From IMG/VR virus record IMGVR_UViG_3300031857_000713, positions 1-34,094 of that record: DNA of 34,094 bases, one strand, 5' to 3'. This document shows positions 873 to 34,094 of this stretch, in pieces; positions within the stretch are counted from its first letter, which is position 1; each line of letters starts with the position of its first letter. The translations under genes were made by a program, and so were the position numbers. Origin of the DNA: a virus. The notes under the pieces are model-generated. The model saw nothing but the letters and a program-made list of their open reading frames with translations, did no database searches and had not been told where the DNA came from.

Positions 873-889
873 AGTATAGACCCCTAACC
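873..889 (-). promoter_or_regulatory. Promoter-like element, third copy of the TTAGGGGTCTATAC motif
   Basis: On the minus strand the element reads GGTTAGGGGTCTATACT. The 14 bases GTATAGACCCCTAA (plus strand) also occur in the two promoter cassettes at 2760 and 4061. TATACT (873-878) would be the -10 hexamer. No -35 consensus lies 16-18 bp upstream, so an activator or the TTAGGGG block may substitute for it. It would serve the 83-aa gene at 528-779. Confidence 0.5.
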
Positions 890-1146: not shown

Positions 1147-1177
1147 CGTCTCCTCCTATCTTGACCGATCGCTCGGA

Positions 1178-2022: not shown

Positions 2023-2360
2023 GCTGCGACTCCTTCCTCGTCAGCCCACCGGATGAATACGCACTCGCGCTCCAACGCCTTGAACGCGCGAGACTTGTCG
2101 GAGCTCTCGCCGCAGATCAGATCGTCGCCGACCGTGATCCCCGTCATCGTCGTAACGAGACCGGCCGGCGTCTCCTCGACGTAGCCGAGCTCGACGAGCT
2201 TCTCGACGTGAGCGGGCTCGAGAGCGTCCGTGAACGGAGCCCGATCGCCGCTGAAGTTGCAGCGAACGATCTTGACCATCGCGACGCCCTCCTCGCGAGT
2301 GAGCTCGTTCTTACGCGCGAACCCGTAGAACGAGCTCCGCTCGATGCGATGGCGACTCAT
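2019..2360 (-). CDS. Hypothetical protein (113 aa), possible fused leader peptide
   Basis: The core from residue 28 (MVKIVRCNF) includes HVEKLVELGYVEETPAGLVTTMTG, which resembles a small wing or helix pair. ATG 2360 lies in the GAGGAGGTGGCAGCATG coupling module. An internal ATG at 2279 also has a strong SD (GAGGAGGG), preceded by codons for EEGVA, the same tail that ends the full protein. The first 27 residues may therefore be a former small gene fused in frame, and the true start may be either ATG. Function unknown. Confidence 0.65.
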   Translation of the reverse strand: MSRHRIERSSFYGFARKNELTREEGVAMVKIVRCNFSGDRAPFTDALEPAHVEKLVELGYVEETPAGLVTTMTGITVGDDLICGESSDKSRAFKALERECVFIRWADEEGVAA

Positions 2361-2719
2361 GCTGCCACCTCCTCATCGACGCGCTCAAGCTGCGGAGATG
2401 CAGTATCCGAGAAACCGGCGACGAAGCGGTACACCCCCGGAACGTGGTCGATCGTGAACTCCTCGCCGAGCGTGAGCTTGATCGCCCGCTCGCGAGCGCT
2501 CGCGCCGGTGCCGGCTCCGTCCACGACGACGGCATGACCGAAGCTATACGCCCACGGTCCCGGTACGAACTCGCCGCCGGCCACGCGGACCCGCTCGACT
2601 CCTTCGGCGACGACGCCGATTCCGACGAGCTTCCCGTAGCGGCCCGCGTCCGTGACGAGGATCTCCGGCGAGTTGTAGCCGTCCTCGTAGCGGTTCATGG
2701 TCGTTTCGATGTTCTTCAT
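2357..2719 (-). CDS. Hypothetical protein (120 aa; 130 aa if leaderless start used)
   Basis: Predicted mainly beta: KLVGIGVVAEGVERVRVAGGEF, YSFGHAVVVDGAG, then a helix (ASARERAIKLTL) and VYRFVAGF. ATG 2719 has SD GAGAGAGGTAGG. An in-frame ATG at 2749 adds MESIEREVGT and lies only 2-4 nt after the predicted transcription start, so a leaderless start is possible. The protein ends EEVAA, giving the SD for the next gene. It is the first gene behind the consensus promoter at 2759-2786. No family recognised. Confidence 0.65.
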   Translation of the reverse strand: MKNIETTMNRYEDGYNSPEILVTDAGRYGKLVGIGVVAEGVERVRVAGGEFVPGPWAYSFGHAVVVDGAGTGASARERAIKLTLGEEFTIDHVPGVYRFVAGFSDTASPQLERVDEEVAA

Positions 2720-2776
2720 GGTTCCTACCTCTCTCTCGATTGACTCCATGCGTAGGAGTGTATAGACCCCTAAGCA
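2717..2776 (-). repeat. 60-bp promoter/start cassette, copy 1
   Basis: Identical to 4018-4077 except for one base (position 2723). It carries, in transcription order, TGCTTAGGGGTC, the -10 TATACA, a possible leaderless ATG (2749), the SD GAGAGAGGTAGG and the ATG 2719. Outside these 60 bp the two loci are unrelated, so it is a mobile or duplicated expression cassette and not a whole-gene duplication. Confidence 0.9.
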
Positions 2777-2786
2777 CAGAAGTCAA
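2759..2786 (-). promoter_or_regulatory. Sigma-A type promoter (TTGACT-16-TATACA)
   Basis: On the minus strand TTGACT (2781-2786) and TATACA (2759-2764) are separated by 16 bp, close to the vegetative sigma consensus. The TTAGGGG block in the spacer is shared with 873-889 and 4060-4077. The start of transcription is expected near 2751-2753, two to four bases before ATG 2749. Confidence 0.75.
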
Positions 2787-2788
2787 GA

Positions 2789-2824
2789 GCTCTCCGGGAG
2801 ATCTTTATCTTACCCCCGGAGAGC
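2789..2824 (-). terminator. Terminator-like hairpin upstream of the promoter
   Basis: A perfect 10-bp inverted repeat (2789-2798 with 2815-2824, GCTCTCCGGG and its complement) encloses a 16-nt loop. It lies after the stop of the 86-aa gene and immediately before the -35 at 2781-2786. It has no U-run, as is common in high-GC genomes. The likely role is to end upstream transcription before the new promoter; an operator role is also possible. Confidence 0.5.
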
Positions 2825-2846
2825 CCGTGAATAAAGGGATTAGCCC

Positions 2847-3107
2847 CTAGCGATAGTCCTCCGGATCGCGATCGTCGGCATCGAACGCGCGCTCCACGGC
2901 GAGCTCGACGAGTACCCGGTCTCCCGGCTCGAACCGGTAGCCAATCAGCGCCGCGGCCGCGAGCGCCGCGTTCTCCGGCGAATACGGCGCCTTCCACGGA
3001 TCCGCCGGATCGACCTTCCATCCGCCGAGCCCGATCGCGATCTGCGCCACGTCGAGGAGATCCCCGCCCGCGATCGCCTCTTCTACCTGCGTTCTGTTCT
3101 CCTGCAT
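2847..3107 (-). CDS. Hypothetical protein (86 aa)
   Basis: A small acidic protein with helix VEEAIAGGDLLDVAQIAIGLGGW, the shared DPADP peptide (residues about 32-36), an Ala-rich helix and YRFEPGDRVLVELAVERAF. ATG 3107 follows AGAGAGGTAGGGAG, the start-associated sequence also used at 2719, 4020 and 13148. It is the last gene of the transcription unit that starts at the 4060 promoter. No family recognised. Confidence 0.65.
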   Translation of the reverse strand: MQENRTQVEEAIAGGDLLDVAQIAIGLGGWKVDPADPWKAPYSPENAALAAAALIGYRFEPGDRVLVELAVERAFDADDRDPEDYR

Positions 3108-3125
3108 CTCCCTACCTCTCTTTCT

Positions 3126-3545
3126 CTAGTCGCGGTCGAGCGCCAAAACTGACGCGCCGACCATTCCGCTTACTTCCTCATCGGTCATCTCCGCCACTTC
3201 CCGCCGAGCCCGCTCGACCGTGCGATCGAGATCGAGCTCGTAGGGATCCCGCGTGATCGCGAGCATCGCGACGAGCCGCTCCCGCGGATCCGTCGAGAGA
3301 TGGTCCCGAAGCGGATCCCGGCGAAACTCGTCGATCATCTGGCAGAGTTCGCACCATTCCTCCGGATGCGCCGCGAACTCCTCCGCGAGCTTGCGCGTCT
3401 TATGCGAGAGGAGCGTCGCGTGATCGTGGCACTCGTTGATCCAGTCCTCCGGATCGTCGGAGTACCAGCGATCGCGGTTGTCGATGACGGTCGTCACGGT
3501 CCCGGTCTGCCGGTTCCGCGCGATCCGCAGATAGCGGCCGGTCAT
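3126..3545 (-). CDS. Hypothetical protein (139 aa)
   Basis: Beta N-terminus (YLRIARNRQTGTVTTVIDNRDRW), then a helical acidic body with HDHATLLSHKTRKLAEEFAAHPEEWCELCQMI (broken here: two CxxC-like cysteines lie in WCELC) and a C-terminal acidic helix with EEVSGMVG. It starts at ATG 3545, overlapping the upstream stop (ATGA) with SD GAGGAG. No family is recognised and no catalytic motif is evident. Confidence 0.65.
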   Translation of the reverse strand: MTGRYLRIARNRQTGTVTTVIDNRDRWYSDDPEDWINECHDHATLLSHKTRKLAEEFAAHPEEWCELCQMIDEFRRDPLRDHLSTDPRERLVAMLAITRDPYELDLDRTVERARREVAEMTDEEVSGMVGASVLALDRD

Positions 3546-3832
3546 CGTGAGCTCCTCGAAGCCGCGAGGCGAGCCCTACGGAGCGCCGCCGGCCTCTTCG
3601 AGTGCAGGATCCGCCAATCGATCCCGCGACCCTCCTCGATCAGACCCTCGCCCTCGAGGAGCTCCGCGAGCTTCGCGTAACCCTGCGCGATCGGGACCGG
3701 CGTCGAGCCGGGAGCCATGATCCAGCCCCCGGACTCGCGCCATCCCTTCGCCTCCGCTACGACGCGCGCGAGATCCTCCCGCGTCATCTGCCACGTAGCC
3801 GTCCGGCGACGCGGACCCGCGACCCGGTTCAT
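3542..3832 (-). CDS. Hypothetical basic protein (96 aa)
   Basis: Basic at both ends (MNRVAGPRRRTATW and ALRRARLAASRSSR). The centre, MTREDLARVVAEAKGW and YAKLAELLEGEGLIEEG, looks like two helices with a turn, as in a small helix-turn-helix or winged helix. ATG 3832 was chosen because it overlaps the upstream stop (ATGA) and sits right behind GAGGAGGTGGCAGC; a longer frame to 3871 has no SD. DNA binding is possible but unproven. Confidence 0.65.
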   Translation of the reverse strand: MNRVAGPRRRTATWQMTREDLARVVAEAKGWRESGGWIMAPGSTPVPIAQGYAKLAELLEGEGLIEEGRGIDWRILHSKRPAALRRARLAASRSSR

Positions 3833-4020
3833 GCTGCCACCTCCTCGCCGCCGATACCGAGATACTCGCATTGACGCTTCCAGATCAGACGCTCGAGCTT
3901 CTTCGTCGCCTTCAATAGCTCCCGGTCGTGAACGTCGAGATCGATCGCGGCCTGCCGCAAATCGAAAGCCTGCCGGCTAATGCTGAGTAGATCGTCGAAA
4001 TAGTTCTCTTCGTGCTGCAT
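3829..4020 (-). CDS. Small helical protein (63 aa)
   Basis: MQHEENYFDDLLSISR followed by one long amphipathic helix with heptad-like spacing (LRQAAIDLDVHDRELLKATKKLERLI) and the tail GGEEVAA. A short coiled-coil protein is likely. ATG 4020 has SD GAGAGAGGTAGG. An in-frame ATG at 4050, at the predicted transcript 5' end, could give a 10-residue longer leaderless form. The EEVAA codons supply the SD of the next gene. Confidence 0.65.
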   Translation of the reverse strand: MQHEENYFDDLLSISRQAFDLRQAAIDLDVHDRELLKATKKLERLIWKRQCEYLGIGGEEVAA

Positions 4021-4077
4021 GGTCCCTACCTCTCTCTCGATTGACTCCATGCGTAGGAGTGTATAGACCCCTAAGCA
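4018..4077 (-). repeat. 60-bp promoter/start cassette, copy 2
   Basis: Matches 2717-2776 at 59 of 60 positions. It contains the same TGCTTAGGGGTC block, -10 TATACA, in-frame leaderless ATG (4050) with the codons for MESIEREVGT, SD and start codon (4020). The near identity over non-coding bases implies recent duplication or strong selection on the regulatory module. Confidence 0.9.
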
Positions 4078-4087
4078 ATATTCAAGG
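4060..4087 (-). promoter_or_regulatory. Promoter, cassette copy 2 (weaker -35)
   Basis: TATACA at 4060-4065 (minus strand) with the conserved TTAGGGG block upstream. The -35 region differs from copy 1: TTGAAT is present but only 14 bp from the -10, or CCTTGA at 16 bp. Strength or regulation may therefore differ from the promoter at 2759. The predicted start is at about 4052-4054, just before ATG 4050. Confidence 0.6.
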
Positions 4088-4323
4088 GTATTCGGCAATC
4101 TTTATCTTTCGATGCTTAGAGCCCTAAAACTCAGGCTTTCGATGCCAGATACAGCACTCCCTAGAGGCGCCCCTACCCGCAACTCGCGAGCCCTCGACCC
4201 CGGCACCCGTCCCTCCCGGACGGCATGCAGCCGCCCTGCCCCTCTAACGGGCGAAGCGACGATCGGCACCGCGGGCGAAAAGCCTCCGCGGTCATCGCCC
4301 GCCGGCACGCGGCCGGTCTTCAG
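4088..4323. other. 236-bp intergenic region with direct repeats and hairpins
   Basis: No convincing gene. CTTTCGATGC occurs twice, at 4106-4115 and 4136-4145, exactly 30 bp apart. The string ATCTTTATCTT (4099-4109) also occurs beside the other promoter cassette (2801-2811). Inverted repeats lie at 4207-4212/4218-4223 (6 bp) and 4271-4278/4295-4302 (8 bp, GCGGGCGA), the latter possibly ending the upstream operon. The direct repeats lie just upstream of the 4060 promoter and could bind an activator or repressor. Confidence 0.5.
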
Positions 4324-4623
4324 CTACGCGATCCGGTCAGCCCTACGACTGCGCGGACGCGCGCCCCTCACCTGCTCACGCTCAGACCGCTTCAAGCGAT
4401 CGATCACGCGAGCCCACGACTCGTAAGCCTGCACTCCGTTATCGCGACGCCTCGAGCAAAGAACGAGACGGCCGACGAGACGATCGAGCTCCCGGATGAT
4501 CTGCCGGCGAGTGAACTCCCCATCGAACCGCGCCTCGAGCTCGTCGAGCGTCATCTCGCGACGATCGAGCATCTGCGAGAGCCGCACGGAGAGCTCGCGG
4601 CGACGACGCTTCGCAGCGCTCAT
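4324..4623 (-). CDS. Small putative DNA-binding protein, winged-helix-like (99 aa)
   Basis: A very basic protein. Residues about 12-70 (RLSQMLDRREMTLDELEARFDG, FTRRQIIRELDRLVGRLVLCSRR, VQAYESW) match the helix, recognition helix and beta-wing order of a small winged helix; the C-terminus is an Arg-rich tail. ATG 4623 overlaps the upstream stop (ATGA). It is the last gene of the operon carrying integrase and nucleases. A regulator or nucleoid-like role is plausible; no family name is assigned. Confidence 0.65.
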   Translation of the reverse strand: MSAAKRRRRELSVRLSQMLDRREMTLDELEARFDGEFTRRQIIRELDRLVGRLVLCSRRRDNGVQAYESWARVIDRLKRSEREQVRGARPRSRRADRIA

Positions 4624-4817
4624 CGCCGGACCCCGCGCCTCGCGGCGAGACCGATCTCATGCAGGACCGCTTCGAGATGCGCGATGCGGCCGGCCATCTG
4701 CGCGCGCTCGAGCTCGAACTGAGCCCACGCGCGATCCTGACCCTCCCGCCACGCCCGCGTCACGTCCTGCGTAGGCGTGATCCCCATCGCCTTGAGCTCC
4801 TCGTAAGGATCGATCAT
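4620..4817 (-). CDS. Hypothetical helical protein (65 aa)
   Basis: MIDPYEELKAMGITPTQDVTRAWREG followed by a long amphipathic helix (AWAQFELERAQMAGRIAHLEAVLHE, here shown as 25 residues in two heptad blocks) suggests a short coiled coil. ATG 4817 overlaps the stop of the 54-aa gene upstream (ATGA), and its own stop overlaps the next start. No family is recognised. Confidence 0.6.
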   Translation of the reverse strand: MIDPYEELKAMGITPTQDVTRAWREGQDRAWAQFELERAQMAGRIAHLEAVLHEIGLAARRGVRR

Positions 4818-4978
4818 CGCTCGCGACCCTCGATCCAGTCGCGATCGGCCTCGAGGGAGAGCTCGACGGACTGCGGCATATAGCGGGCGCGATGCTCGAG
4901 CGCGCGGCGATACCCCTTACGGCGCATCCGAGCGTCCCTCGCGCGGATCCGCTTCCAGAACCAATCGACGCGCGTCAC
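4814..4978 (-). CDS. Small basic protein (54 aa), GTG start
   Basis: Reads VTRVDWFWKRIRARDARMRR and ends EADRDWIEGRER. GTG 4978 overlaps the TGA of the PD-(D/E)XK-like gene (GTGA), with SD GGAGG four bases upstream, and its TGA overlaps the next ATG (ATGA). This double 4-bp overlap and the SD support it as a real gene. The basic first half could bind nucleic acid or membranes. Function unknown. Confidence 0.65.
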   Translation of the reverse strand: MTRVDWFWKRIRARDARMRRKGYRRALEHRARYMPQSVELSLEADRDWIEGRER

Positions 4979-5427
4979 GCCGCCTCCGCAATCTCGACGG
5001 GCGCCTCGATCCGGTGAAGCTGCTCGATCGGAACGTCGATGATGAGCTCCTGATCGTTCGGAGCATCTACCCGATCGATCCGGCCCGCGATCCGGTTCCG
5101 GCGAGCGTCGATCTCATCGGCCTTCACGTAGCCGACGACTCCATCGGTGAAAGCGAAGACGTACAAGCCGGGAACGCCGAGCGCCTCTCCGAACCGCAGA
5201 AGGTAGAACCACTTCGCCGCGCTCGCGAAGACGGTCGGATAACGGTTCGACTCGTTCCGGCGAACCTTGATCTCCGCGACGAAGCGCGTAACGCCGTTCT
5301 CGACGCCGAACCGGTCGAGCCGATCGAAGCGCCCGAACTTCCGCATCTGCACTCCCCACGCGCGTTCGATGAGCTCGGCGACGCGCTGCTCGTTTCGCTC
5401 GTCGTTCTCATCGACGCGAACGATCAC
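4975..5427 (-). CDS. PD-(D/E)XK-like nuclease (150 aa)
   Basis: The motif order is that of PD-(D/E)XK nucleases: an N-terminal helix with Glu (RVAELIERAWG), Asp38 in RLDRFGVENG, then AEIK at residues 51-54, and a helix and strand (FASAAKWFYLLRFGEAL, LYVFAFTDG) as in phage resolvase-like or RecB-type nucleases. GTG 5427 overlaps the upstream stop (GTGA) with SD GGGAGGG. The neighbour upstream is an HNH nuclease. Candidate roles are processing of recombination intermediates or degradation of foreign DNA. The fold call rests on motif spacing only. Confidence 0.55.
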   Translation of the reverse strand: MIVRVDENDERNEQRVAELIERAWGVQMRKFGRFDRLDRFGVENGVTRFVAEIKVRRNESNRYPTVFASAAKWFYLLRFGEALGVPGLYVFAFTDGVVGYVKADEIDARRNRIAGRIDRVDAPNDQELIIDVPIEQLHRIEAPVEIAEAA

Positions 5428-5741
5428 GATTCCCTCCCGTTGATCTGCCGGCGCGCGAGCTCGAGCCCTCCGGCGATCAGAACCGCCGCGGCTTCCTCGC
5501 GAGCGGTCAGATAGCCGAGAAGGGAGATCTCATGCGCGTCGTAGCGCTGATGACAACCGGGACCGCTCGCGTCGCCGGCGCAAAGCGGAACGACGTTGAT
5601 CGCTCCCTGATTCGCCGGACCGGGCGCAACGCTGCGCGGGATGACGTGAGCGGCCTCGAGCCGGCGATCAGAGCGCCCGCAGTACCGGCACCGGCCCTCC
5701 TCATCGACCTTCGCTCGAGGCTCCGCCCAATCGCGCCTCAT
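5424..5741 (-). CDS. Second HNH endonuclease (105 aa)
   Basis: A compact HNH protein: Cys18-x2-Cys21 in CRYCG, LEAAHVIPRS with His32, then NVVPLCAGD (Cys54) and GCHQRYDAH (Cys63, His64). ATG 5741 was chosen because it overlaps the upstream stop (ATGA) and has SD GGAGGG; the frame is open further upstream, but that stretch overlaps the 3D-domain gene. It sits in the accessory operon, away from the terminase, so it is more likely a recombination or homing-type nuclease than a packaging factor. Confidence 0.75.
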   Translation of the reverse strand: MRRDWAEPRAKVDEEGRCRYCGRSDRRLEAAHVIPRSVAPGPANQGAINVVPLCAGDASGPGCHQRYDAHEISLLGYLTAREEAAAVLIAGGLELARRQINGRES

Positions 5742-6157
5742 CCGGCCCTCCATACGAGCCGAGCTCCCTTCGCTCCCCGGCGAAACTTGTAGCCGCCGAT
5801 CGGCCGGCCGCGGTAGAGCTCCGATCGCGGGACGACGCGGATCGAGACCTGCCGCCTTCCCCACGCCTGCATAAAGCCGCAGTACCGGCCGGCGTAGATA
5901 TCGATCAGAAAGCCGGGACCGCCGGTATCGCGGACCCTGAAGTATCGGTAGCGCTTCGAGCCGATCGTGACCGCACGCGGACGCTTGAGCTCGATCCACG
6001 TCCCATACGCGAGATCGTTCGATGCCACGTCGCCGAGCCGAAGCGCGTTCCCTCGAGATCCGATCGAGACGCTGCCATCGCACGGCGCGTAAGCCGTAGC
6101 GGAGCCCGTAAGAACGAGAGCGCTCGAGACGGCGAGCTCGGCGATCACGGAGCCCAT
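5738..6157 (-). CDS. Secreted 3D-domain (cell-wall) protein
   Basis: The N-terminus (IAELAVSSALVLTGSATAYA) looks like a signal peptide or membrane anchor. The rest matches the 3D domain named for three Asp residues in MltA- and YocH-like lytic enzymes: Asp48 in NDLAYGT, Asp77 in RVRDTGG, and Asp86 in LIDIY, followed by WGRRQVSIRVV. Such domains act on peptidoglycan outside the membrane. A GTG at 6148 that overlaps the upstream stop (GTGA) is an alternative start and still gives the signal sequence. It is far from the lysis cassette, between an HNH nuclease and small early proteins, which suggests a role during infection or lysogeny rather than in final lysis. Confidence 0.65.
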   Translation of the reverse strand: MGSVIAELAVSSALVLTGSATAYAPCDGSVSIGSRGNALRLGDVASNDLAYGTWIELKRPRAVTIGSKRYRYFRVRDTGGPGFLIDIYAGRYCGFMQAWGRRQVSIRVVPRSELYRGRPIGGYKFRRGAKGARLVWRAG

Positions 6158-6354
6158 CCCCGCCGCCAGCGCCGCTCAGCGCGCCTCTCGCGCCCCTCAC
6201 GCTGCATCTCGAGCCCCTCGACGCGGACGCTCAGCCGCCGGAGCTCGCGAACGGCGTCATCTTGCGACCATCCCCACTCGGCGACCGGCTCGCCGGCACG
6301 CTCCGCAAGATGACGGATCGAAGCGATCTGAGTACGAGTCGCCCTAGCCGGCAT
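6145..6354 (-). CDS. Hypothetical basic protein (69 aa)
   Basis: MPARATRTQIASIRHLAERAGE, then SQDDAVRELRRLSVRVEGLE and an Arg-rich tail. The pattern of a short helical pair with a basic tail is typical of small nucleic-acid-binding phage proteins (compare the SAP-like segment ATRTQIASIRHLAER), but it is not diagnostic. It overlaps the upstream gene by 11 bp and the 3D-domain gene by 13 bp. Confidence 0.5.
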   Translation of the reverse strand: MPARATRTQIASIRHLAERAGEPVAEWGWSQDDAVRELRRLSVRVEGLEMQREGRERRAERRWRRGWAP

Positions 6355-6640
6355 CCTCGACCCCTTCGTCCTTCGGGCGCGCGTCGTACTCGCGCATCGC
6401 CTCGCGCGTAGTCATCGGCCGGCCCTGCGCGCGAGCGAACTTGAAGACGGCGACCGGGATCACGTCGTAGGCGCGCTGATTCGGAACGGGCTCGGCGAGC
6501 TTGGCGGCGTGCTCCGGAGTGAAGCCGAACGGATCGCACGCGGCCGGGTACTTCAAGATCCGCACGTCCTCGCGCTCGACGATTACGTGACGCTCCGGCT
6601 CCGGCTTCTCCTTACGCTCACGCTTCTTCCGGCGGATCAT
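6344..6640 (-). CDS. Hypothetical protein (98 aa)
   Basis: It begins with a strongly charged stretch (RRKKRERKEKPEPERHVIVE), followed by FGFTPEHAAKLAEPVPNQRA and a helix. ATG 6640 overlaps the upstream stop (ATGA). No family or catalytic motif is recognised. Confidence 0.55.
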   Translation of the reverse strand: MIRRKKRERKEKPEPERHVIVEREDVRILKYPAACDPFGFTPEHAAKLAEPVPNQRAYDVIPVAVFKFARAQGRPMTTREAMREYDARPKDEGVEDAG

Positions 6641-6834
6641 TCGTGCTCCTTCACCGCGGAGCGCAGACGCTCGGCCAACTGCTCACGGCGACGCTCGGCT
6701 GACTCGACAGTTGAACGCGCATCGCGAAGCTGAGCTTCGGCCTCGACAAGCTCGCGAGCCCAATAGAGAAGAACGAGCGGATTCGGCGGATGCGGAGGTA
6801 GCTCTCGAGCGATGAGTTTCTTCCCGGCAGTCAT
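6637..6834 (-). CDS. Small coiled-coil protein (65 aa)
   Basis: MTAGKKLIARELPPHPPNPL leads into a continuous helix rich in Glu, Arg and Ala with heptads (LVEAEAQLRDARSTVESAER and on to the C-terminus). It probably forms a dimeric coiled coil. Both ends join neighbours by 4-bp ATGA overlaps. Function unknown. Confidence 0.55.
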   Translation of the reverse strand: MTAGKKLIARELPPHPPNPLVLLYWARELVEAEAQLRDARSTVESAERRREQLAERLRSAVKEHE

Positions 6835-7064
6835 CCGGCCTCCTCGATCTCGTCGCGGAGCTCGTTCACGCGAGTTACGAGCTCGAGGATGATCTCCGTC
6901 GTCAGAAGCTCCCGGAGAAGAACGCCGGTCTCGACCTCGAGCCGCGAGTCGTCATCGAAGAGGAGAACCGTTCGCGTATCGATCCGCTCGATCCAGACGA
7001 CCTCCGGATACGGAGCTTCCTCGCGCCCGAAACGAACCGCGGCAAACATTCCCTCAGCGGCCAC
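6831..7064 (-). CDS. Hypothetical acidic protein (77 aa), first gene after integrase
   Basis: A small beta domain (VVWIERIDTRTVLLFDDDSR, LEVETGVLL) and a C-terminal acidic helix (LVTRVNELRDEIEEAG). GTG 7064 overlaps the end of the integrase gene by 11 bp; ATG 7049 is an alternative start. A role as a recombination directionality factor was considered because of its place beside int, but it is acidic and lacks a helix-turn-helix, so no function is assigned. Confidence 0.5.
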   Translation of the reverse strand: MAAEGMFAAVRFGREEAPYPEVVWIERIDTRTVLLFDDDSRLEVETGVLLRELLTTEIILELVTRVNELRDEIEEAG

Positions 7065-8157
7065 TTCGCACCGCCTCCGGATATCGTGCGTTCCTAGCGC
7101 GTTCTATCTCCGCTTCTACTACCCGCAGACGAGCCTCGAGAGCCTCCGACCCGTCAGAAAGCCTTATTCCTACGTCACCTTCCGACTTCACCGGTTCGAG
7201 TCCGGTCGTCGCCTTCTCTCCCGCAAACGGGGAAAGCCGATCGAGCTCATCGGAATACGTGCTAGATCCGGTATCGAAACGCAGTCCATCCACGGCAGTT
7301 CGGAGCTCGTCCGTCGAAGGCTTCGACGTATAGATCTGAATCGTCGTCGATACGTCCGCATGACGGAGGAGAGCCTGCGCGAGCCTCGAGTCGCGGTTCT
7401 TCGCGACGTGATCTCCGAAGGCGTGCCGGAGAAGATGCGGGCGCAGCGCGTACGGAAGGTTCGCGCGCTCGCCGAGCTTGACGATCATCTCCCATAGCGC
7501 CTTCTTACTCGTCGGCCGATTCATGAGAAGCCGGTATCGCGTATTCATCGGAGGATCGATCGAGCGGCGAGCCGGGATCACGTACTCGTCATCGGCGACG
7601 TGCTCGCGGATCTCGGAGATCACCGGCTCGAGCTCCGGGATGACCGGCAACCACGCCTCCTTACCTCCCTTCGCGATATCGCTCGAGATCCAGATCAGAC
7701 CCGGCCGCGCAACGTGGCGACCCTGCATGAGCCGAACCTCGTTCGCGCGACCGCCAGCGCAAGCCATGAGATGAGCCGCGCGATACTCGCGGATATCCGA
7801 GCGGCTCGTCGTGAGAACGTGCGCGACCTCCTCCGGCGTCATCCGCGTAGTCGAGACCGGACGCGGCTTGACGCGCTTCACTTGCCGCGCGGGATTCTCC
7901 GGCCGATAGCCCTCCTCGACCATCCAGTCGAAGAACGATCGGAAGATCGAGTGAGCCGTCCGCGCAGTATTCGGCTTCCAGCGCCGGAGAGCGCGCTTCA
8001 CGTCATCGCGGGAGATCTTCTCCGGCGGCTTGTCGCCGCTCACGTCTCGCAGAACCTCGAGCCGGCCGCGGTAGTTGATCTCCGTCGATACGGAGTTGAA
8101 GCGGCCGGTCGCGATCTGATCGGCCACGTACTCGTCGATGAGTTGATCGGTAGTCAT
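7054..8157 (-). CDS. int: Tyrosine integrase (367 aa)
   Basis: The N-terminal SAM-like core-binding domain spans residues about 1-100 (DQLIDEYVADQIATGRF, AHSIFRSFFDWMVEEGY). The catalytic domain holds Arg137 (GGRANEVRL), Lys163/Lys166 (IAKGGKEAWLP), His241-x-x-Arg244 (HLLRHAFGDH), His266 (LLRHAD) and Tyr276 (TIQIYTS). It integrates the phage into the host chromosome. The protein continues about 90 residues beyond Tyr276, and that tail contains TGLEPVK, the reverse-strand reading of a tRNA T-arm (see the attP candidate at 7190-7214). The tail is therefore probably phage-form specific and would be exchanged on integration, while the catalytic core would not. ATG 8157 has SD GGGGG at some distance. 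Confidence 0.95.
   Translation of the reverse strand: MTTDQLIDEYVADQIATGRFNSVSTEINYRGRLEVLRDVSGDKPPEKISRDDVKRALRRWKPNTARTAHSIFRSFFDWMVEEGYRPENPARQVKRVKPRPVSTTRMTPEEVAHVLTTSRSDIREYRAAHLMACAGGRANEVRLMQGRHVARPGLIWISSDIAKGGKEAWLPVIPELEPVISEIREHVADDEYVIPARRSIDPPMNTRYRLLMNRPTSKKALWEMIVKLGERANLPYALRPHLLRHAFGDHVAKNRDSRLAQALLRHADVSTTIQIYTSKPSTDELRTAVDGLRFDTGSSTYSDELDRLSPFAGEKATTGLEPVKSEGDVGIRLSDGSEALEARLRVVEAEIERARNARYPEAVRSGR
7190..7214 (+). other. Candidate attP core: tRNA 3'-end-like sequence inside int
   Basis: Read on the plus strand, ACCGG (7190-7194), loop TTCGAGT (7195-7201) and CCGGT (7202-7206) form a perfect five-pair T-arm with the invariant TTCRA. CGTCGCC (7207-7213) follows as the 3' acceptor strand and T7214 as the discriminator. 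No D- or anticodon arm lies upstream, so it is a tRNA end only, as in attP cores of phages that integrate into tRNA genes. CCA is not encoded. The host tRNA cannot be named. Confidence 0.6.
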
Positions 8158-8164
8158 CTACTGA

Positions 8165-9088
8165 TTATCCCCCTAGCGCGGCGTACCGGCGCCGGAGCTC
8201 GTCGAGTACCTGATCCGGAATCCCCGCGCAACGCGGACAGTCCGGCCGGCCGGACTCGTTCTCCTCCTCTTCGCCGCGGTACTTCGCGCGCAGATCACGC
8301 CGGCCGAGCTCCTCGCAGTCGCGCAGCGCCTCCTCTACATCGACCTCCCCATCCGCGAGAGCTCGCAACGGGATCGAGAGCTTCGAGACGCCGGCGACCT
8401 GAAGCTCGCGAGGATCGGCGCCGCCCTCGAGGATGTATCGCTCGTAGATCGACGCGAGATCGAAGAACGTAGTCCGCGAGATGCAGATCGCGGGATCGGC
8501 GAGAAAGTCTGAGAGCTTCTCGTAGCCGAGATCCCGGTACGCATGATCGCGACTTAGCTCGTAGCACGCCTCCGCGACGACCGCCATCGCAAGCCGCGAA
8601 GCCGAGAGCCCGTCGATGAGCTTCTCGTAGGATTCGTGCGCGGTCTGCGCCCGTACCTCGATCTCGCCGTGAACGGTCATCGTCCCGGCATCCGTCGAGA
8701 TCCGAACCCCGGTCGGCCGCGCGTGCATGAAGATCGTCCGGTGCGGCGTATGAGTAACCGTTACGTTCACGGACTCGCCGAGCATCTCCTGAAGAGCCGC
8801 GACGATCGCCTCCGGATCGGTCTCCGAGATCCCGAACCGCTGAGCGAACTCGACCATCCCGCGACGCTGACCGGCGCTGAGATTGAACGGGTACTGCTCA
8901 TCGTCGGAGAGCCGGCGCTGCTCGCGCGCGTAGGAGCCGGCGTCGTTCTGCGAGACGATCCGCAGCCAATGACCGCCCTTCTTCCGCCGGACGACGCCGA
9001 CCTCGCGCAGAGTTACAAGATGCGTACCGTCCGGGAACGCTCCGACTTCGGTCGCCTCGATCTGCCGGACGAGCTTCTCAGCGGTCAT
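8165..9088 (-). CDS. Conserved-type phage protein of early operon (307 aa)
   Basis: The N-terminal half (residues 1-135: HLVTLREVGVVRRKKGGHWL, REQRRLSDDEQYPF, VTVTHTPHRTIFMHA) is beta-rich and could be an OB-like domain. The middle is helical (SRLAMAVVAEACYELSRDHA, YEKLSDFLADPAICISRTTF) and resembles a helix-turn-helix core followed by coiled helix. The C-terminus has CPRC, half a zinc ribbon. ATG 9088 has SD GGGGAG; the longer open frame lacks support. The place between integrase and replication genes suggests DNA binding. The family is not recognised. Confidence 0.6.
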   Translation of the reverse strand: MTAEKLVRQIEATEVGAFPDGTHLVTLREVGVVRRKKGGHWLRIVSQNDAGSYAREQRRLSDDEQYPFNLSAGQRRGMVEFAQRFGISETDPEAIVAALQEMLGESVNVTVTHTPHRTIFMHARPTGVRISTDAGTMTVHGEIEVRAQTAHESYEKLIDGLSASRLAMAVVAEACYELSRDHAYRDLGYEKLSDFLADPAICISRTTFFDLASIYERYILEGGADPRELQVAGVSKLSIPLRALADGEVDVEEALRDCEELGRRDLRAKYRGEEEENESGRPDCPRCAGIPDQVLDELRRRYAALGG

Positions 9089-9284
9089 CGCTTCGCTCCC
9101 CGGAGCCCGGATGCAGGAGACCTCGAGCGTCGATGATCGCGCGCTCGTAGTCGCGCTCGACGCGGCGCCGCTCATCCTCGAGCTCGACGATGCGCCGCAG
9201 CACTCCACGCAGAAGCGCGGCGCGTCCCTTCTGCCGCTGAGCCTCCTCGCGGAGAGCTTCGGTCTCGCCCCTACGCCTCAGCAT
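9078..9284 (-). CDS. Small coiled-coil protein (68 aa)
   Basis: MLRRRGETEALREEAQRQKG and VLRRIVELEDERRRVERDYE show strong heptad character; the protein is one long charged helix with a short Gly/Ser tail. ATG 9284 has SD GGGGGAG. It overlaps both neighbours by about 11-14 bp. Function unknown; it may partner with the 307-aa protein downstream. Confidence 0.5.
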   Translation of the reverse strand: MLRRRGETEALREEAQRQKGRAALLRGVLRRIVELEDERRRVERDYERAIIDARGLLHPGSGERSDDR

Positions 9285-9480
9285 CGAGTCTCCCCCGCGC
9301 GATCCTGCAAGCGTGCTCGAGCTCGCCGAGAAGCCGCTCGAGCGTAAGACGAGTGATCTCGTCACGCGAGCCGGCGGCGTACCGGTACATCGTCGGCATG
9401 AGCTCGCCGGCCATGACCGCGACGTGCTCGACGTACGGCTCGAGCTTCGGCTTCGGCTTCGGTCTGAGATCGATCTTCAC
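9271..9480 (-). CDS. Hypothetical protein (69 aa), GTG start
   Basis: It starts with a Lys-Pro repeat (MKIDLRPKPKPKLEPYVEH), then MAGELMPTMYRYA and an alpha-helical C-terminus (ERLLGELEHACRIARGRL). GTG 9480 overlaps the upstream stop (GTGA) with SD GGAGG. No family is recognised. Confidence 0.5.
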   Translation of the reverse strand: MKIDLRPKPKPKLEPYVEHVAVMAGELMPTMYRYAAGSRDEITRLTLERLLGELEHACRIARGRLDAEA

Positions 9481-10202
9481 GCCGCCTCCGGTGAGTTCGG
9501 AGCGCCGGTCTCCGGATCCAGTCCGAGATCCGCTCGACGTTCGGCGATCTGCCGCGGGAGTCCCTGCTCAGGATCCATCTTCGCCACTTCTCCCGGCGTG
9601 CGGTTCCGGTAGTTACGAAGCCGCGCGTCGCGGTCTCCCTCCTTCACCGGCGGAAGCGGCGAGCGGCGCGCGCGCTCCACGGCGGCCTCGAGGCGATGCA
9701 CGGTCGCGAGAGCGATCCCGCGAGCCCTGCGGTACTCATCCGATCGCCGGTCGGCGAGCACCTTCGAGGGATGCTCGACCGTGCCGATGATCTCGCCGTC
9801 GATCCGAACCGTCGAGCCTTCGCTTACGACCTGCAAGCTCGCGAGAGCACGCTCGATCCGGGCGCCGATCGAAAGCCCTCTACTGAGCTCCGCAGCCTCC
9901 CGGCTCTCACGGTCACGTCGAGCACGCTCGGCCTCGATCTTCTCGCGCGCCTGCTCCTTCTCGCGCTGCACGGCGCCCCGTGCAGACTTCGCGCGATCCT
10001 CGAGGATCTCGAGCGCCCGCGAGGGACCGCGCTCACGAATCAGATACTCGCAGTAGTCGTTCGATGGCGACCAGCACTCCACGCCGGGAACGTGATCCGG
10101 ATTCGCCGGATCGCTCGACGTGATCTGATTCGCGAAGACGCGGAGCTCCGCGGCGTACGCGAGAACTTCGTCCCTCGAGGCTTTCCGCTCGACCTTCGCC
10201 AC
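9477..10202 (-). CDS. Hypothetical protein with central coiled coil (241 aa)
   Basis: The N-terminus has DEVLAYAAELRVFANQITS and SDPANPDHVPGVECWSPSN, the DPANP peptide shared with other early proteins. Residues about 60-110 form a long charged helix (GAVQREKEQAREKIEAERAR). A beta hairpin follows (STVRIDGEIIGTVEHPSKVL), then a basic tail. It lies directly after the SSB-like gene, so a role in DNA metabolism is possible. No enzyme motif is evident. Confidence 0.55.
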   Translation of the reverse strand: MAKVERKASRDEVLAYAAELRVFANQITSSDPANPDHVPGVECWSPSNDYCEYLIRERGPSRALEILEDRAKSARGAVQREKEQAREKIEAERARRDRESREAAELSRGLSIGARIERALASLQVVSEGSTVRIDGEIIGTVEHPSKVLADRRSDEYRRARGIALATVHRLEAAVERARRSPLPPVKEGDRDARLRNYRNRTPGEVAKMDPEQGLPRQIAERRADLGLDPETGAPNSPEAA

Positions 10203-10204
10203 GG

Positions 10205-10630
10205 CTAGAACGGAATCTCGACCTTCGGCTCGATCGTCGGAGCCTCGACCTCTTCATCGAGCGGGAAGTACCGATCGATCTTCGCCTGCGGCTTCCCGTT
10301 GTATTCCTCTTCGATCGTGACGATGCCGCACGTCTTCCCGATCAGATCTGACGGCGCGAGCTCGAACTCGCCCTCCGGGATCTCCCGGCCGACCGCGACG
10401 AGTACCTGCGCGAGCTTCCACTTCGCGCCATCCGTGAATACGAGGTAGTCACGAATCGATCGCGACTTCTGATCGCCGCGAAGGATCTCCACGTTCACGA
10501 CGATCATCGGATTATTAGAAGACTGCGAGACGGTCTCCTCCGCATCGATGAACGCGGCCACGTACTGACCGGCCGGCACGATCGGCGGAGCGCCCTTCGC
10601 ATCTTCAGCGCTGATTCCGGATAGCTTCAC
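10205..10630 (-). CDS. SSB-like DUF669 protein (141 aa)
   Basis: The sequence follows the DUF669 pattern: GQYVAAFIDAEETVSQSSNN, MIVVNVEILRGDQKSRSIRD, YLVFTDGAKWKLAQVLVAVG, then a beta segment. It ends in an acidic linker and EIPF, very like the DDDIPF tail by which SSB recruits partners. DUF669 proteins are phage single-strand DNA-binding proteins. The gene overlaps by 4 bp and follows the Sak4-like ATPase, matching the known pairing in which SSB stimulates Sak4 annealing. Confidence 0.75.
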   Translation of the reverse strand: MKLSGISAEDAKGAPPIVPAGQYVAAFIDAEETVSQSSNNPMIVVNVEILRGDQKSRSIRDYLVFTDGAKWKLAQVLVAVGREIPEGEFELAPSDLIGKTCGIVTIEEEYNGKPQAKIDRYFPLDEEVEAPTIEPKVEIPF

Positions 10631-11394
10631 TCTTCTTCCTCTCTCTCGTTATCGGTTAGAAACGGAACGTCGCTCACGTCGAGCGCGAGCGCCGCGCAGA
10701 ACTCCTCCTGCCACTCGGCAAGATCGAGCGGCCGATAGACGCCGAGAGCGCCGGAGCGATCCTTCGCCCTGCGCCCGTGAGCCTCGACAAGCTGCCCTAG
10801 ATACTGAGTTCCGTCTTCAGTCGTGCGAGCTCGGCAATACGCGAGAACGTCCACTTCGCCGCACCACTCCTGCGTCGTACGACCGCCGATGAGCGGCTGC
10901 ACGATTAGCTCCTCGTCCTGCACGATCTCTTCATGCGCGACGACCACGGTCGTAAAGCGCGCATCGCGGAGCTCGAGGATGATCTCCGTCATCGCTCGCG
11001 CCACGGCTCCCCACTCCGGCCGAGTTACCTCCTCGCCGGCGCTGATCGCCTGCGCGAGCGCTGAGCGGAGCTTCGCCGCGGTATCGATCACGAAAGCGTC
11101 CGCGCCCTTCGTGCTCGCGTACCAGAACGCCTCCTCGAGACGCTCCCGCGGATCCTCGCCCGGTCGGACGCGAACCTCGCGGATCGTCGTTCCGAGCGCT
11201 TCAGCGCGCTTACGTGCGAAAGCCATCGCGCCGGCGCCCTCGAGATTGATCCAGACGATCTCGCCTCCCGGAGCTACGCCGGCCGCAGCCGTCGTCTTCC
11301 CGGAGCCGGCCGGCCCGTAGAGCATGAAGTTGATCGCGCCCTGCGGTCCGAGAACCGGCGGCGAGTCGAAGAGCTCCTTCTCAGAGGTACTCAT
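10627..11394 (-). CDS. sak4: Sak4-type RecA-like ATPase (255 aa)
   Basis: A RecA-fold NTPase: Walker A GPAGSGKT at residues 27-34 and Walker B AFVIDT around Asp104, followed by TVVVAHEE (a histidine-sensor-like strand) and GRTTQEWCGEVDVLAYCRA. Size and motif order match the AAA_24/Sak4 group of phage single-strand annealing proteins. It would load on SSB-coated DNA and anneal strands for phage recombination and repair. The adjacent DUF669/SSB-like gene is its likely partner. ATG 11394 overlaps the upstream stop (ATGA). Confidence 0.8.
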   Translation of the reverse strand: MSTSEKELFDSPPVLGPQGAINFMLYGPAGSGKTTAAAGVAPGGEIVWINLEGAGAMAFARKRAEALGTTIREVRVRPGEDPRERLEEAFWYASTKGADAFVIDTAAKLRSALAQAISAGEEVTRPEWGAVARAMTEIILELRDARFTTVVVAHEEIVQDEELIVQPLIGGRTTQEWCGEVDVLAYCRARTTEDGTQYLGQLVEAHGRRAKDRSGALGVYRPLDLAEWQEEFCAALALDVSDVPFLTDNEREEEE

Positions 11395-11594
11395 GCCGGC
11401 GCCCCGGTGCCGATCATCGTCTCAATCTCGTCGAGCTTGTCGCGCATACGGCCGACGAGCCGGTCGAGCTCGACGATGCGATCGCGATCGGGCTCCCGGT
11501 GATCGAGAGCGGTTCGCTGCGCCATCTCCACGAGCTCGGCGATGCGTTCGGTCGTCTCGCAGACGTACTCGATGATCTCATCGTCGAGCCTCAT
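11391..11594 (-). CDS. Small helical acidic protein (67 aa)
   Basis: MRLDDEIIEYVCETTERIAE and DRDRIVELDRLVGRMRDKLD give two amphipathic helices, probably a helical hairpin or coiled coil. ATG 11594 overlaps the upstream stop (ATGA) with SD GGAGGAT; its TGA overlaps the Sak4 start. A longer open frame to 11708 lacks an SD and would cover the membrane-protein gene. Function unknown. Confidence 0.6.
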   Translation of the reverse strand: MRLDDEIIEYVCETTERIAELVEMAQRTALDHREPDRDRIVELDRLVGRMRDKLDEIETMIGTGAPA

Positions 11595-11740
11595 CGCATC
11601 CTCCGATCCAGCGGACTCTCCCCGTAAATACGCTCGCCGATCAGATCGACGAGCACGTAGCCGAAGAAGACGATCACTCCGACCGCTCCGACAATGAACG
11701 CGAACCACGCGGCCGCGAACAGAAACTCACTTATGAGCAC
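11591..11740 (-). CDS. Small single-pass membrane protein (49 aa), GTG start
   Basis: Residues about 4-32 form one strong hydrophobic segment (FLFAAAWFAFIVGAVGVIVF then GYVLV), followed by a charged tail ending PLDRRMR. GTG 11740 has SD GGGAG; the TGA overlaps the next ATG (ATGA). The positive C-terminal tail predicts N-out, C-in topology. Small early phage membrane proteins can act in superinfection exclusion or membrane modification; here that is inference from position and size only. Confidence 0.6.
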   Translation of the reverse strand: MLISEFLFAAAWFAFIVGAVGVIVFFGYVLVDLIGERIYGESPLDRRMR

Positions 11741-11945
11741 CAGCACTCCCTACTCCTCTCTCTCGTTTCTCTTTCTCGATCGCACGCCGACAGGCGTCCG
11801 CTTCGAGCTCGGCGAAGCGAAGGAGAAACGACTGCACCGCCCATATCTCGGCCGGAGTGAAGTCGCGCAGATACAACGGCGCGCGCTCCGCACAGCTATA
11901 AAGCTGCTCAGTCGCGTAAACATGAGTTCGCGCGGATTCGCTCAT
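11727..11945 (-). CDS. Hypothetical protein (72 aa)
   Basis: MSESARTHVYATEQLYSCAE, then APLYLRDFTPAEIWAVQSFL and a helical, charged C-terminus (CRRAIEKEKRERGVG). The DFTPAEIWAVQSFLLRFAEL stretch looks like a helix pair. ATG 11945 overlaps the upstream stop (ATGA). It is sandwiched between two small membrane-protein genes. No family is recognised. Confidence 0.55.
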   Translation of the reverse strand: MSESARTHVYATEQLYSCAERAPLYLRDFTPAEIWAVQSFLLRFAELEADACRRAIEKEKRERGVGSAGAHK

Positions 11946-12067
11946 CGAACGAGCCCCACGATCAGATCGACGAGGAGAACCGCTGCCGCAGCTACCGCCA
12001 CCGCGAATAGAATCCGCGGCGTGCTCGCCTCTCCGGTTCGACTCCCTCTCGTTCGGTCGTATCTCAT
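11942..12067 (-). CDS. Tiny single-pass membrane protein (41 aa), first gene of early operon
   Basis: A basic head (MRYDRTRGSRTGEASTPR) is followed by one hydrophobic helix (ILFAVAVAAAAVLLVDLIVG) and the end LVR. ATG 12067 has GAGGG four bases upstream; the TGA overlaps the next ATG. A cytoplasmic basic N-terminus is expected (N-in). It shares the LVDLI segment with the second small membrane protein (VLVDLIGERI), a hint that the two are related. Confidence 0.55.
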   Translation of the reverse strand: MRYDRTRGSRTGEASTPRILFAVAVAAAAVLLVDLIVGLVR

Positions 12068-12252
12068 TCATCCCTCGTTCCTACCGTGCTTCTCCCGAAG
12101 TCTTCGCCGCTAAGACGGCTAATCCTCCGACTACCTAGCGCGAACCTATATCACTCGTCGGACGAACCGATAGCGCACCTGCGGCAAAAACCCGCGGAAG
12201 TTGCGTAAAACTCCTGATACAGGGCGTTATAGGACTGAGCTACGATCGCGCC
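12068..12252. promoter_or_regulatory. Divergent control region between early operon and repressor
   Basis: 185 bp without a gene. TATAGG occurs on the plus strand at 12228-12233, about 20 bp before the repressor ATG, and on the minus strand at 12145-12150, about 78 bp before the first early gene. Both are possible -10 elements with weak -35 regions. An inverted repeat, CCTG-ATA-CAGG (12213-12223), lies inside the plus-strand promoter and could be an autoregulatory operator. The 12160-12200 stretch also holds short GC-rich inverted repeats. Confidence 0.5.
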
Positions 12253-12603
12253 ATGAAGGACGCGGAAGCGATCGGCAAGCGCATACGGGAGCTCCTCGAC
12301 GAGCGCCATCCGGGAAAGCCGCGGCGCCTCATCTGTACCGAAGCCGGCGTGAGCTATAAAACGCTCAGCGATTCCCTAGCCGGAAAGACGATCCCGCGGT
12401 ACGCGACGATCGAGCGGCTCGCAGCGTATCTAGACGTATCCCCCGGCTCCCTCTACACCGGCGAGGATGACGAGATCGAGCTTTCAAACGCCGACCGGCT
12501 GCGGTCGATCGAGCGGCAGATAAGCGAACTGACCGGAACGCTCGACGAGCTCGCGAAGCGCGTCGCGGCCGATGAGCGTCAGTCGCGCGGCGCCGGCAAC
12601 TGA
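12253..12603 (+). CDS. XRE-family repressor (116 aa)
   Basis: The N-terminal helix-turn-helix of the Cro/CI type covers residues about 5-70. Its core is ICTEAGVSYKTLSDSLAGK (residues 27-45), followed by IPRYATIERLAAYLDVSPGSL. The C-terminal 40 residues are a charged coiled coil (RLRSIERQISELTGTLDELA) that probably dimerises it. It lacks a LexA-type peptidase domain, so induction would not be by RecA self-cleavage. Divergent from the early operon across a control region, it is the best candidate for the immunity repressor. There is little SD, and the leader is short. Confidence 0.8.
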   Translation: MKDAEAIGKRIRELLDERHPGKPRRLICTEAGVSYKTLSDSLAGKTIPRYATIERLAAYLDVSPGSLYTGEDDEIELSNADRLRSIERQISELTGTLDELAKRVAADERQSRGAGN

Positions 12604-12779
12604 GCTTCGGCTAGATCGCGTAGCCGGCGGAGCCGGTCGTGAACCTCCCGAAGCTCGCCGCGAAAGCGATCTCGCCGATCGACGCGAGGTAGCTCCTCAT
12701 CGACTAACTCAAACATTCGCGCGAATACCGCTAGAGCTTCACGACCACTTACCGGCGGATCCTCTTCTGCTCCGAGCAC
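12579..12779 (-). CDS. Small protein antisense-overlapping the repressor 3' end (66 aa)
   Basis: It begins MLGAEEDPPVSGREALAVFA and continues as a charged helix (ELREVHDRLRRLRDLAEAQL). GTG 12779 has a good SD (GGGGAGG, five bases upstream). Its last 25 bp overlap the repressor gene on the opposite strand. It could be a Cro-like or anti-repressor partner, but no helix-turn-helix is clear. Transcription would oppose the repressor message. Confidence 0.5.
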   Translation of the reverse strand: MLGAEEDPPVSGREALAVFARMFELVDEELPRVDRRDRFRGELREVHDRLRRLRDLAEAQLPAPRD

Positions 12780-13147
12780 TAATCCTCCCCGTTCTTTCTA
12801 CTGGTCCTAAAAGCTATACAGAACTCGCCACGCTCTTTCCACCTAGACGGCGCGACTAAGCGCTTTTGCATCTTCTCGAGAACCACTCGCCCTACCCGAA
12901 CCGGGTAGTTCGCGTGATCGACCCCTGAAACGCCGAAGCGCCCGCCCCCGCGCGAAGCGGAGACGGGCGCCGGTGCGCGAGAGAGAGCGCGCAACCGATC
13001 AAGCCAGCGGGTAGGGACGCGGGCTCGATCGTCTTCGGCCGCAAGCTGCGGCGAAGCGTTATGAAGTTATTCGCTTAGCCCCCTTGACGCGGAGACGATA
13101 AGCTGCTTAGCTCCCTATACAAGTTCTTCTAGAGAGAGGAGTAGGGA
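12780..13147. other. 368-bp hairpin-rich gap before Prim-Pol; candidate origin or regulatory RNA
   Basis: No supported gene. Hairpins: CTACCCG/CGGGTAG at 12892-12898 and 12902-12908; GCGCCCG/CGGGCGC at 12938-12944 and 12964-12970, with an inner CCGC-GCGAA-GCGG stem; GCCGC/GCGGC at 13038-13042 and 13048-13052. CTATACA occurs at 12814-12820 and again at 13115-13121 on the plus strand. TTGACG at 13084 is badly spaced for either. An AT-richer patch follows at 13058-13075. The position in front of the primase gene favours an origin; a structured leader RNA is equally possible. Confidence 0.45.
13103..13121 (+). promoter_or_regulatory. Plus-strand variant of the TGCTTAG-CTATACA promoter
   Basis: TGCTTAG (13104-13110) and CTATACA (13115-13121) keep the blocks and near-spacing of the minus-strand cassettes at 2759 and 4060. 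TATACA would be the -10, with a start near 13128 and about 20 nt of leader that includes AGAGAGGAGTAGGGA before ATG 13148. No good -35 at 16-18 bp. Likely drives Prim-Pol. Confidence 0.5.
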
Positions 13148-13714: not shown

Positions 13715-13791
13715 CAGTCCAGATGCTCGACGCGCGCTGCCACGACCGCGAGAAGTGTCAGAAGCGCCGGTTCGACAAGCGGAGCCGGTAG
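13711..13791 (+). CDS. 26-aa Cys/His peptide coupled to Prim-Pol
   Basis: MTVQMLDARCHDREKCQKRR plus six residues. Cys9, His10 and Cys15 with a basic tail suggest a metal knuckle, too small for a full finger alone. ATG 13711 overlaps the Prim-Pol stop (ATGA) with a strong SD (GAGGAGG). Good SD and overlap support expression. The function is unknown; it could be half of an intermolecular zinc site. Confidence 0.5.
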   Translation: MTVQMLDARCHDREKCQKRRFDKRSR

Positions 13792-13792
13792 C

Positions 13793-34041: not shown

Positions 34042-34094
34042 GAATCGGTCCTCCTACTTGAACCGCTGCCCCGCTGCGCGAGTGAAAAAAACTC
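34042..34094. other. Genome-end segment upstream of terminase
   Basis: It contains the SD (TAGGAGGACC) and a seven-A run (34084-34090) flanked by GAGT and ACTC. If the ends are joined, this inverted repeat is extended by one pair with base 1. No late promoter is obvious in these 53 bases. They may be part of cos or the HNH terminator; both are guesses from position. Confidence 0.3.

What the first reader, a model, noticed from the sequence alone, without database searches (positions are those of the whole stretch)
7054..8157. Candidate attP lies inside the integrase gene and would split the early operon on integration
A perfect tRNA T-arm with the 3' acceptor strand (7190-7214, plus strand) sits in the int coding sequence, 41 codons after the catalytic Tyr276. 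In this frame it reads TGLEPVK, typical of a T-arm read in reverse. If this is the attP core, integration would keep the catalytic core but replace the last 45-50 residues of Int. It would also separate the operon from 12.07 kb (Sak4, SSB and int) from the distal genes at 0-7 kb. Those distal genes carry their own promoters (4060, 2759, 873), so they could be expressed in the lysogen. This suggests an integration-dependent switch of both Int form and operon structure.
Basis: partly seen in the sequence, partly recalled or inferred. Interest (0 to 1): 0.75.

Follow-up and report, generated by a model that had tools for sequence, protein, structure and literature searches.

The report
Phage integrase trimmed by its own integration
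The site where this soil phage joins its host's chromosome lies inside the end of its own integrase gene, so joining a cysteine-tRNA gene cuts off the enzyme's last 44 amino acids and splits a gene cluster in two; related prophages show this has really happened, but whether the change regulates anything is not known.

Summary
A 24-nt tRNA 3' end (perfect T-arm plus acceptor strand) lies at 7190-7213 (+), antisense inside int. The same 24-mer is the 3' end of tRNA-Cys(GCA) in Conexibacter and other Solirubrobacterales. The three closest integrase relatives found in 399 genomes of that class (40-47% identical) all sit at a complete tRNA-Cys, with int running antisense into the T-arm and ending ...GIEPV* or ...GIEPE*; the stop comes from the host tRNA's variable loop. 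Two attL/attR pairs are clean: a siphovirus prophage split over two contigs (G037) and a 1,419-bp element (G397). Joined in silico, both give an attP in which Int reads on for 35-36 residues; the window gives 44. So attP inside int, Int truncation and operon splitting are well supported for this family, and inferred for this phage, whose own lysogen was not found. Not supported: that it is a regulatory switch. Tails are not homologous, 44-codon open stretches are common here, and a 47%-identical viral integrase ends without tail or T-arm. The proposed promoters exist as three copies of a 14-mer but lie beyond ten attR-proximal genes. New variant of a known kind.

The parts
7054..8157 (-). int: tyrosine integrase, 367 aa in the free (attP) form, catalytic Tyr276; core-binding plus catalytic domain only, no N-terminal arm-binding domain
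   Evidence: Pfam PF00589 E 6.6e-19 and PHROG 1 E 2.6e-38; catalytic residues invariant; profile matches full-length lambda Int only from its residue 90
7189..7215 (+). attP common core: tRNA-Cys T-arm (7190-7206) and acceptor 3' strand (7207-7213); antisense it encodes Int residues 315-323 KATTGLEPV
   Evidence: 26-28 nt identical to tRNA-Cys 3' ends of Solirubrobacterales; attL/attR cores of relatives 26-29 nt at the same Int position
7057..7188 (-). codons of the Int C-terminal tail (residues 324-367) predicted to be lost on integration
   Evidence: translation; in relatives Int stops at GIEPV*/GIEPE* at attL and the tail is left at attR
6831..7064 (-). small gene (77 aa) downstream of int, overlapping its end by 11 nt; moved to the attR end on integration
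   Evidence: ORF overlap; a small gene also follows int across attP in G037 and follows int in L099, those two homologous (43.6%, E 1.5e-10); g6831 itself has no significant match to them
7054..12071 (-). proximal part of the early operon (Sak4, SSB, g8165, int), which stays with the early promoter region in the prophage
   Evidence: gene overlaps and gaps of at most 7 nt; Sak4 and SSB matches
4324..7064 (-). ten tightly overlapping genes (including HNH-like and PDDEXK nucleases) separated from the early promoter by integration; no repeat promoter of their own
   Evidence: gaps all -4 to -13 nt; PF24579; HNH
4061..4074 (-). TTAGGGGTCTATAC promoter-like repeat, copy 1
   Evidence: exact 14-mer, within a 66-nt direct repeat that is 95% identical to the 2711-2776 copy; lies in a 225-nt gap
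2760..2773 (-). TTAGGGGTCTATAC promoter-like repeat, copy 2
   Evidence: exact 14-mer; the only sigma-70-like hit in 1-14800, with 1.6 expected by chance
874..887 (-). TTAGGGGTCTATAC promoter-like repeat, copy 3
   Evidence: exact 14-mer; lies in a 139-nt gap
12253..12603 (+). Cro/C1-type HTH protein, divergent from the early operon, likely lysogeny repressor; attP is not in this gene
   Evidence: PF01381, PHROG transcriptional regulators
34094..34094 (.). right genome end (cos); joined to base 1 through TCGCCGGAAGG (11 nt) in contig L004
   Evidence: about ten related or identical contigs start at the homologous base

Best explanation
The window is the linear virion genome (about 34,105 bp with an 11-nt cos overhang) of a temperate siphovirus of Thermoleophilia (Solirubrobacterales-like) bacteria. 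It carries a compact integration module: a small tyrosine integrase without an arm-binding domain, whose last coding bases contain the 26-28 bp attP core, a copy of the host tRNA-Cys T-arm and acceptor end. Int recombines this core with the 3' end of tRNA-Cys and rebuilds the tRNA. At attL the int reading frame now runs antisense into the host tRNA and meets a stop in the variable loop, so the prophage makes Int of about 323 residues with the whole catalytic domain instead of 367. The tail codons and the rest of the early operon move to the attR end. The gene rearrangement is shown in relatives and inferred for this phage. Most likely the tail is dispensable and the overlap reflects compactness of an integrase that needs only a core site, not a dedicated switch; separating the attR-proximal genes from the early promoter until excision is the consequence most likely to matter (inferred).
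For: 24-mer at 7190-7213 is the tRNA-Cys 3' end in Solirubrobacterales and Conexibacter. Closest Int relatives G397, G037 and G150 all at a complete tRNA-Cys with Int ending GIEPV*/GIEPE* inside it. attL/attR cores of 26-29 bp in the two clean pairs. In silico attP restores extended Int in G397 (+36, stop overlapping the next ATG) and G037 (+35). G037's other half is a 33-kb contig with phage genes (TerL and portal matches). Contig L004 of this same phage has cos joined and ends at base 7198, inside the core; chance about 0.0014 for two ends in 34.1 kb (own arithmetic). Operon overlap int/g6831 of 11 nt. No arm domain. A Ms6-type 26-bp core at a tRNA T-loop is a known precedent (PMC1762012).
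Against: No lysogen of this exact phage was found. L004 could end at the core by chance or through an assembly break. The G150 int is frameshifted and its core includes the variable loop, so its free form would also stop after PV. The G037 prophage is joined across two contigs by inference.
Confidence: 0.85

Rival explanations
1. The tail is functional: full-length Int from the circular genome and trimmed Int from the prophage differ in activity, stability or direction (built-in directionality without an excisionase, or a removable degron), so integration is a true switch of Int form.
For: Every clean attP examined (window, G397, G037) gives a longer Int than its attL; in G397 and the window the extended ORF ends on the start of the next gene. 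Integration-dependent immunity phages use the same trick on their repressor, with a stop at attL (PMC9262239, PMC8092301).
Against: Tails are not homologous. 43% of random 44-codon stretches in this genome are open. Window tail GC3 is 0.52 against 0.78. L099, a 47% identical viral Int, ends at 314 aa without tail or T-arm. The tail does not end in an ssrA-like AA tag. In G037 the tail overlaps the ribosome-binding site and start of the next gene.
Confidence: 0.2
2. The T-arm is a fossil or a transduced tRNA fragment, not the working attP.
For: No lysogen of this phage is available; the core was not tested for recombination.
Against: In three relatives the integrated junction falls at the same Int codons and the same tRNA; the match to host tRNA-Cys is exact over 26-28 nt.
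Confidence: 0.05
3. The operon split is the selected feature: genes 7064-4324 (nucleases and others) are silenced in the lysogen because integration removes them from the early promoter, and come back on only after excision.
For: Unbroken chain of overlapping genes from 12071 to 4324, with no promoter repeat before 4074. In the int-less relative G014 the homologous operon runs straight on from the g8165 homologue. A small gene again follows int across attP in G037.
Against: No expression data; a host promoter downstream of tRNA-Cys could read in at attR; most genes are of unknown function.
Confidence: 0.3

Closest known systems
Mycobacteriophage Ms6 integration at the tRNA-Ala T-loop (PMC1762012)
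   Same: about 26-bp core from the T-arm to the tRNA 3' end, not reaching the variable region; strand exchange probably in the T-loop
   Different: different tRNA (Cys); the core here lies inside the int coding sequence
Integration-dependent immunity of mycobacteriophage BPs and M. abscessus prophages (PMC9262239, PMC8092301)
   Same: attP inside a coding sequence of a tRNA-targeting tyrosine-integrase phage; the gene product is shortened by a stop created at attL; BPs-type systems need no arm-type sites
   Different: there the repressor loses its degradation tag; here the integrase itself loses its tail, which is not an obvious tag, and the repressor-like gene is 4 kb away
Archaeal suicidal (SSV-type) integrases (PMC8371274)
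   Same: recombination site inside the integrase gene
   Different: SSV-type genes are split into an N-terminal part and a catalytic C-terminal part; here the site is 39 codons after the catalytic Tyr and the catalytic domain stays whole. That review calls self-disrupting recombinases exclusively archaeal
Haloarchaeal pleolipoviruses with attP inside a CDS next to the integrase (PMC7911831)
   Same: attP inside an ORF of the integrase operon that exists only in circular DNA
   Different: the split ORF there is a separate gene downstream of int
Simple tyrosine recombinases, IntBrujita subgroup (PMC8138268)
   Same: core-binding plus catalytic domain only, phage-borne; profile hit to PDB 5vfz (Gp33)
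   Different: weak match (E 1e-9 over 87 residues); directionality not tested

Membership tests
Tyrosine recombinase (phage integrase family) | conserved R-K-H-x-x-R-H-Y active site | tested here: met
   R137, K163, H241, R244, H266, Y276 invariant; PF00589
Simple (arm-less) tyrosine recombinase | no N-terminal arm-binding domain | tested here: met
   core-binding domain match begins at residue 22; full-length lambda Int matched only from residue 90
tRNA T-loop (Ms6-type) integration | attP/attB core of about 26 bp from T-arm to tRNA 3' end | tested here: met
   26-28 nt shared with tRNA-Cys; 26 and 29 nt in the G037 and G397 attL/attR pairs
tRNA T-loop (Ms6-type) integration | strand exchange within the T-loop | not testable with these tools
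   needs recombination assays
Integration-dependent immunity (BPs type) | attP inside the repressor gene | tested here: not met
   attP is in int; the repressor-like gene is at 12253-12603
Integration-dependent immunity (BPs type) | ssrA-like C-terminal tag removed by integration | tested here: not met
   Int tail ends ...EAVRSGR
Integration-dependent immunity (BPs type) | new stop codon at attL | tested here: met
   TAA from the tRNA variable loop in G037, G397 and G150; predicted for four host genomes
Suicidal (SSV-type) integrase | integration splits the catalytic part from the rest and inactivates int | tested here: not met
   core lies after Tyr276; the catalytic domain stays intact at attL

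The most novel reading that the evidence does not exclude
Integration-dependent integrase: the circular phage makes a long Int and the prophage a short one with different activity, so that the host tRNA's variable-loop stop codon sets the direction of recombination without an excisionase, while the same event gates ten early genes on excision.
Probability: 0.15. Interest if true: 0.8.

Novelty: new variant of a known kind. Interest (0 to 1): 0.5.

Why it matters
It shows in bacteria, with natural prophages, that an integrase gene can carry its own attachment site and be rewritten at each integration without losing its active site. It is an intermediate between ordinary tRNA-targeting phages and archaeal suicidal integrases, and a counterpart of integration-dependent immunity in which the integrase rather than the repressor changes. 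It also gives a testable idea of how an arm-less integrase could obtain directionality, and a likely host class for an unknown soil phage group.

Tried and rejected
Prophage of this exact phage: integrase scan of genome contigs found none; the 25-mer and the right flank were found in no viral contig, the left flank only in L004. TerL relatives as a route to integrases: the complete relative G014 and the near-complete G008 carry none. G049 holds a broken prophage with TerL 51%, an HNH and an Int fragment, but no tRNA. Tail conservation: only a short, doubtful G397/G150 similarity; dropped as evidence. AlphaFold model of Int from three sequences was too poor (mean pLDDT 49.7; a tail helix at 336-358 of low confidence). 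Reading the tail as a degradation tag: rejected, no AA end. Full-text searches found no paper on an integrase truncated by its own integration in bacteria, but most subscription literature is not held; from memory, some phages and integrative plasmids of Gram-positive bacteria have attP overlapping the end of int, which I could not verify.

Full report
1. What is there. ACCGGTTCGAGTCCGGTCGTCGCC occurs once in the window, at 7190-7213 on the + strand. It has a perfect 5-bp T-stem, the canonical TTCGAGT loop and a 7-nt acceptor strand; no complete tRNA gene is present. It lies antisense in int (8157-7054, 367 aa), and bases 7189-7215 encode residues 315-323, KATTGLEPV, 39-47 codons after the catalytic Tyr276.

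2. Host and tRNA. A scan of 84,980 species genomes returned 21 stretches with this 24-mer. In every one with a complete tRNA at the match it is the 3' end of tRNA-Cys(GCA). Among them are Conexibacter sp. S30A1 and DBS9H8 and several Solirubrobacterales MAGs, with 26-28 nt of identity to the window. Conexibacter belongs to class Thermoleophilia. tRNA-Cys is an integration hot spot there: one MAG carries three copies of the tRNA end and S30A1 two.

3. Relatives show the mechanism. Six-frame search of 399 genomes of that class gave three strong Int relatives: G397 (44%), G037 (40-44%) and G150 (47%, frameshifted). Later profile searches of 31 family, 232 order, 399 class and 396 phylum genomes added none. 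All three sit at a complete tRNA-Cys with int antisense, and the protein alignment runs through the T-arm: KATTGIEPV, EAPSGIEPE, EATTGIEPV. Directly after it comes TAA, the antisense of the variable loop TTTAC. Second core copies mark the other ends: G397 1,419 bp away, G150 7.4 kb away, and G037 at the start of a separate 33-kb contig carrying a siphovirus genome with TerL and portal homologues. Joining the flanks in silico restores attP: Int then runs on 36 aa in G397 (stop overlapping the ATG of the next gene) and 35 aa in G037; in G150 the core includes the variable loop, so it stops at once. For the window phage the same junction gives Int ...KATTGLEPV* in four Solirubrobacterales/Conexibacter host genomes and ...VYTALQAAG* in two others.

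4. State of the genome. Contig L025 ends at base 34094 like the window, and about ten contigs in all from different metagenomes begin at the homologous base before terL. L004, 99.9% identical to the window, joins both ends with 11 extra bases, TCGCCGGAAGG. The window is therefore most likely linear virion DNA with cos ends, and L004 intracellular DNA. L004 stops at base 7198, inside the core, as expected near an integration site (chance about 0.0014), although an assembly break cannot be excluded.

5. Operon. Genes from 12071 down to 4324 overlap or lie within 7 nt, across attP as well (int/g6831 overlap 11 nt). Integration cuts this chain at 7.19 kb. The motif TTAGGGGTCTATAC occurs three times, only on the minus strand, at 4074, 2773 and 887, in three of the longest intergenic gaps. 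In the complete relative G014, which lacks an integrase, the g8165 homologue is followed at once by the distal genes, including one resembling g6344.

6. Is it a switch? Against: the tails of window, G397 and G037 are unrelated; a random 44-codon stretch of this genome is open 43% of the time; tail GC3 is 0.52 against 0.78 in 12 genes; a 47% identical viral Int (L099) ends at 314 aa without T-arm. For: all clean attP forms are longer than their attL forms, and the extended ORF ends on the next start codon in two of three. I put a dispensable tail first, a regulated switch at 0.2.

7. Comparison. The core resembles that of Ms6 (PMC1762012). The attL stop resembles integration-dependent immunity (PMC9262239, PMC8092301), but another gene is trimmed. 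Having the site inside int resembles archaeal suicidal integrases (PMC8371274), but the active site survives. It works like a mild form of these and is a member of none beyond simple tyrosine integrases.

Noticed in passing
window 27532-27594 (-), between the capsid gene and the next gene: tRNA-like fold: 7-bp acceptor-like stem, perfect T-arm CGGGGTTCGATTCCCCG and one hairpin; weak Rfam tRNA-Sec hit (23.2 bits, E 0.03), folding z -2.9. Present in L004 and L025, not found in more distant relatives.
   Followed up: partly
L093 (G397:C137) 8457-9898: an apparent 1,419-bp mobile element at tRNA-Cys holding only int, a ribbon-helix-helix (CopG-like) gene and one small gene, bounded by two 29-nt cores.
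   Followed up: partly
window 1 and 34094: conserved physical ends beside terL in many metagenomes (NNNTTTTTTTCAC...), with an 11-nt sequence TCGCCGGAAGG in the joined form: probable cos site.
   Followed up: yes
L029 (G014), L026/L027 (G008): relatives with the same structural genes have no integrase and no match to the HTH repressor or prim-pol genes of the window, so the lysogeny module seems to be gained or lost as a unit.
   Followed up: partly
L068 (G059:C148) and L069 (G293:C24): other integrases whose C-termini also read into a tRNA-Glu T-arm (AHTGFEPVPPP*) and into a tmRNA-like 3' end (AAGIEPASAAAPAEHLQA*): the overlap may be common in this class.
   Followed up: partly
L031/L037 (DAIDME010000099.1, Solirubrobacterales MAG): three tandem copies of the tRNA-Cys end, marking two stacked elements of about 4.4 and 1.1 kb whose cores reach up to the anticodon loop, unlike this phage.
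   Followed up: no
L110 (G049:C13): broken prophage with TerL 51% identical to the window's, an HNH gene and an Int fragment in a Thermoleophilia genome: supports the host class.
   Followed up: partly
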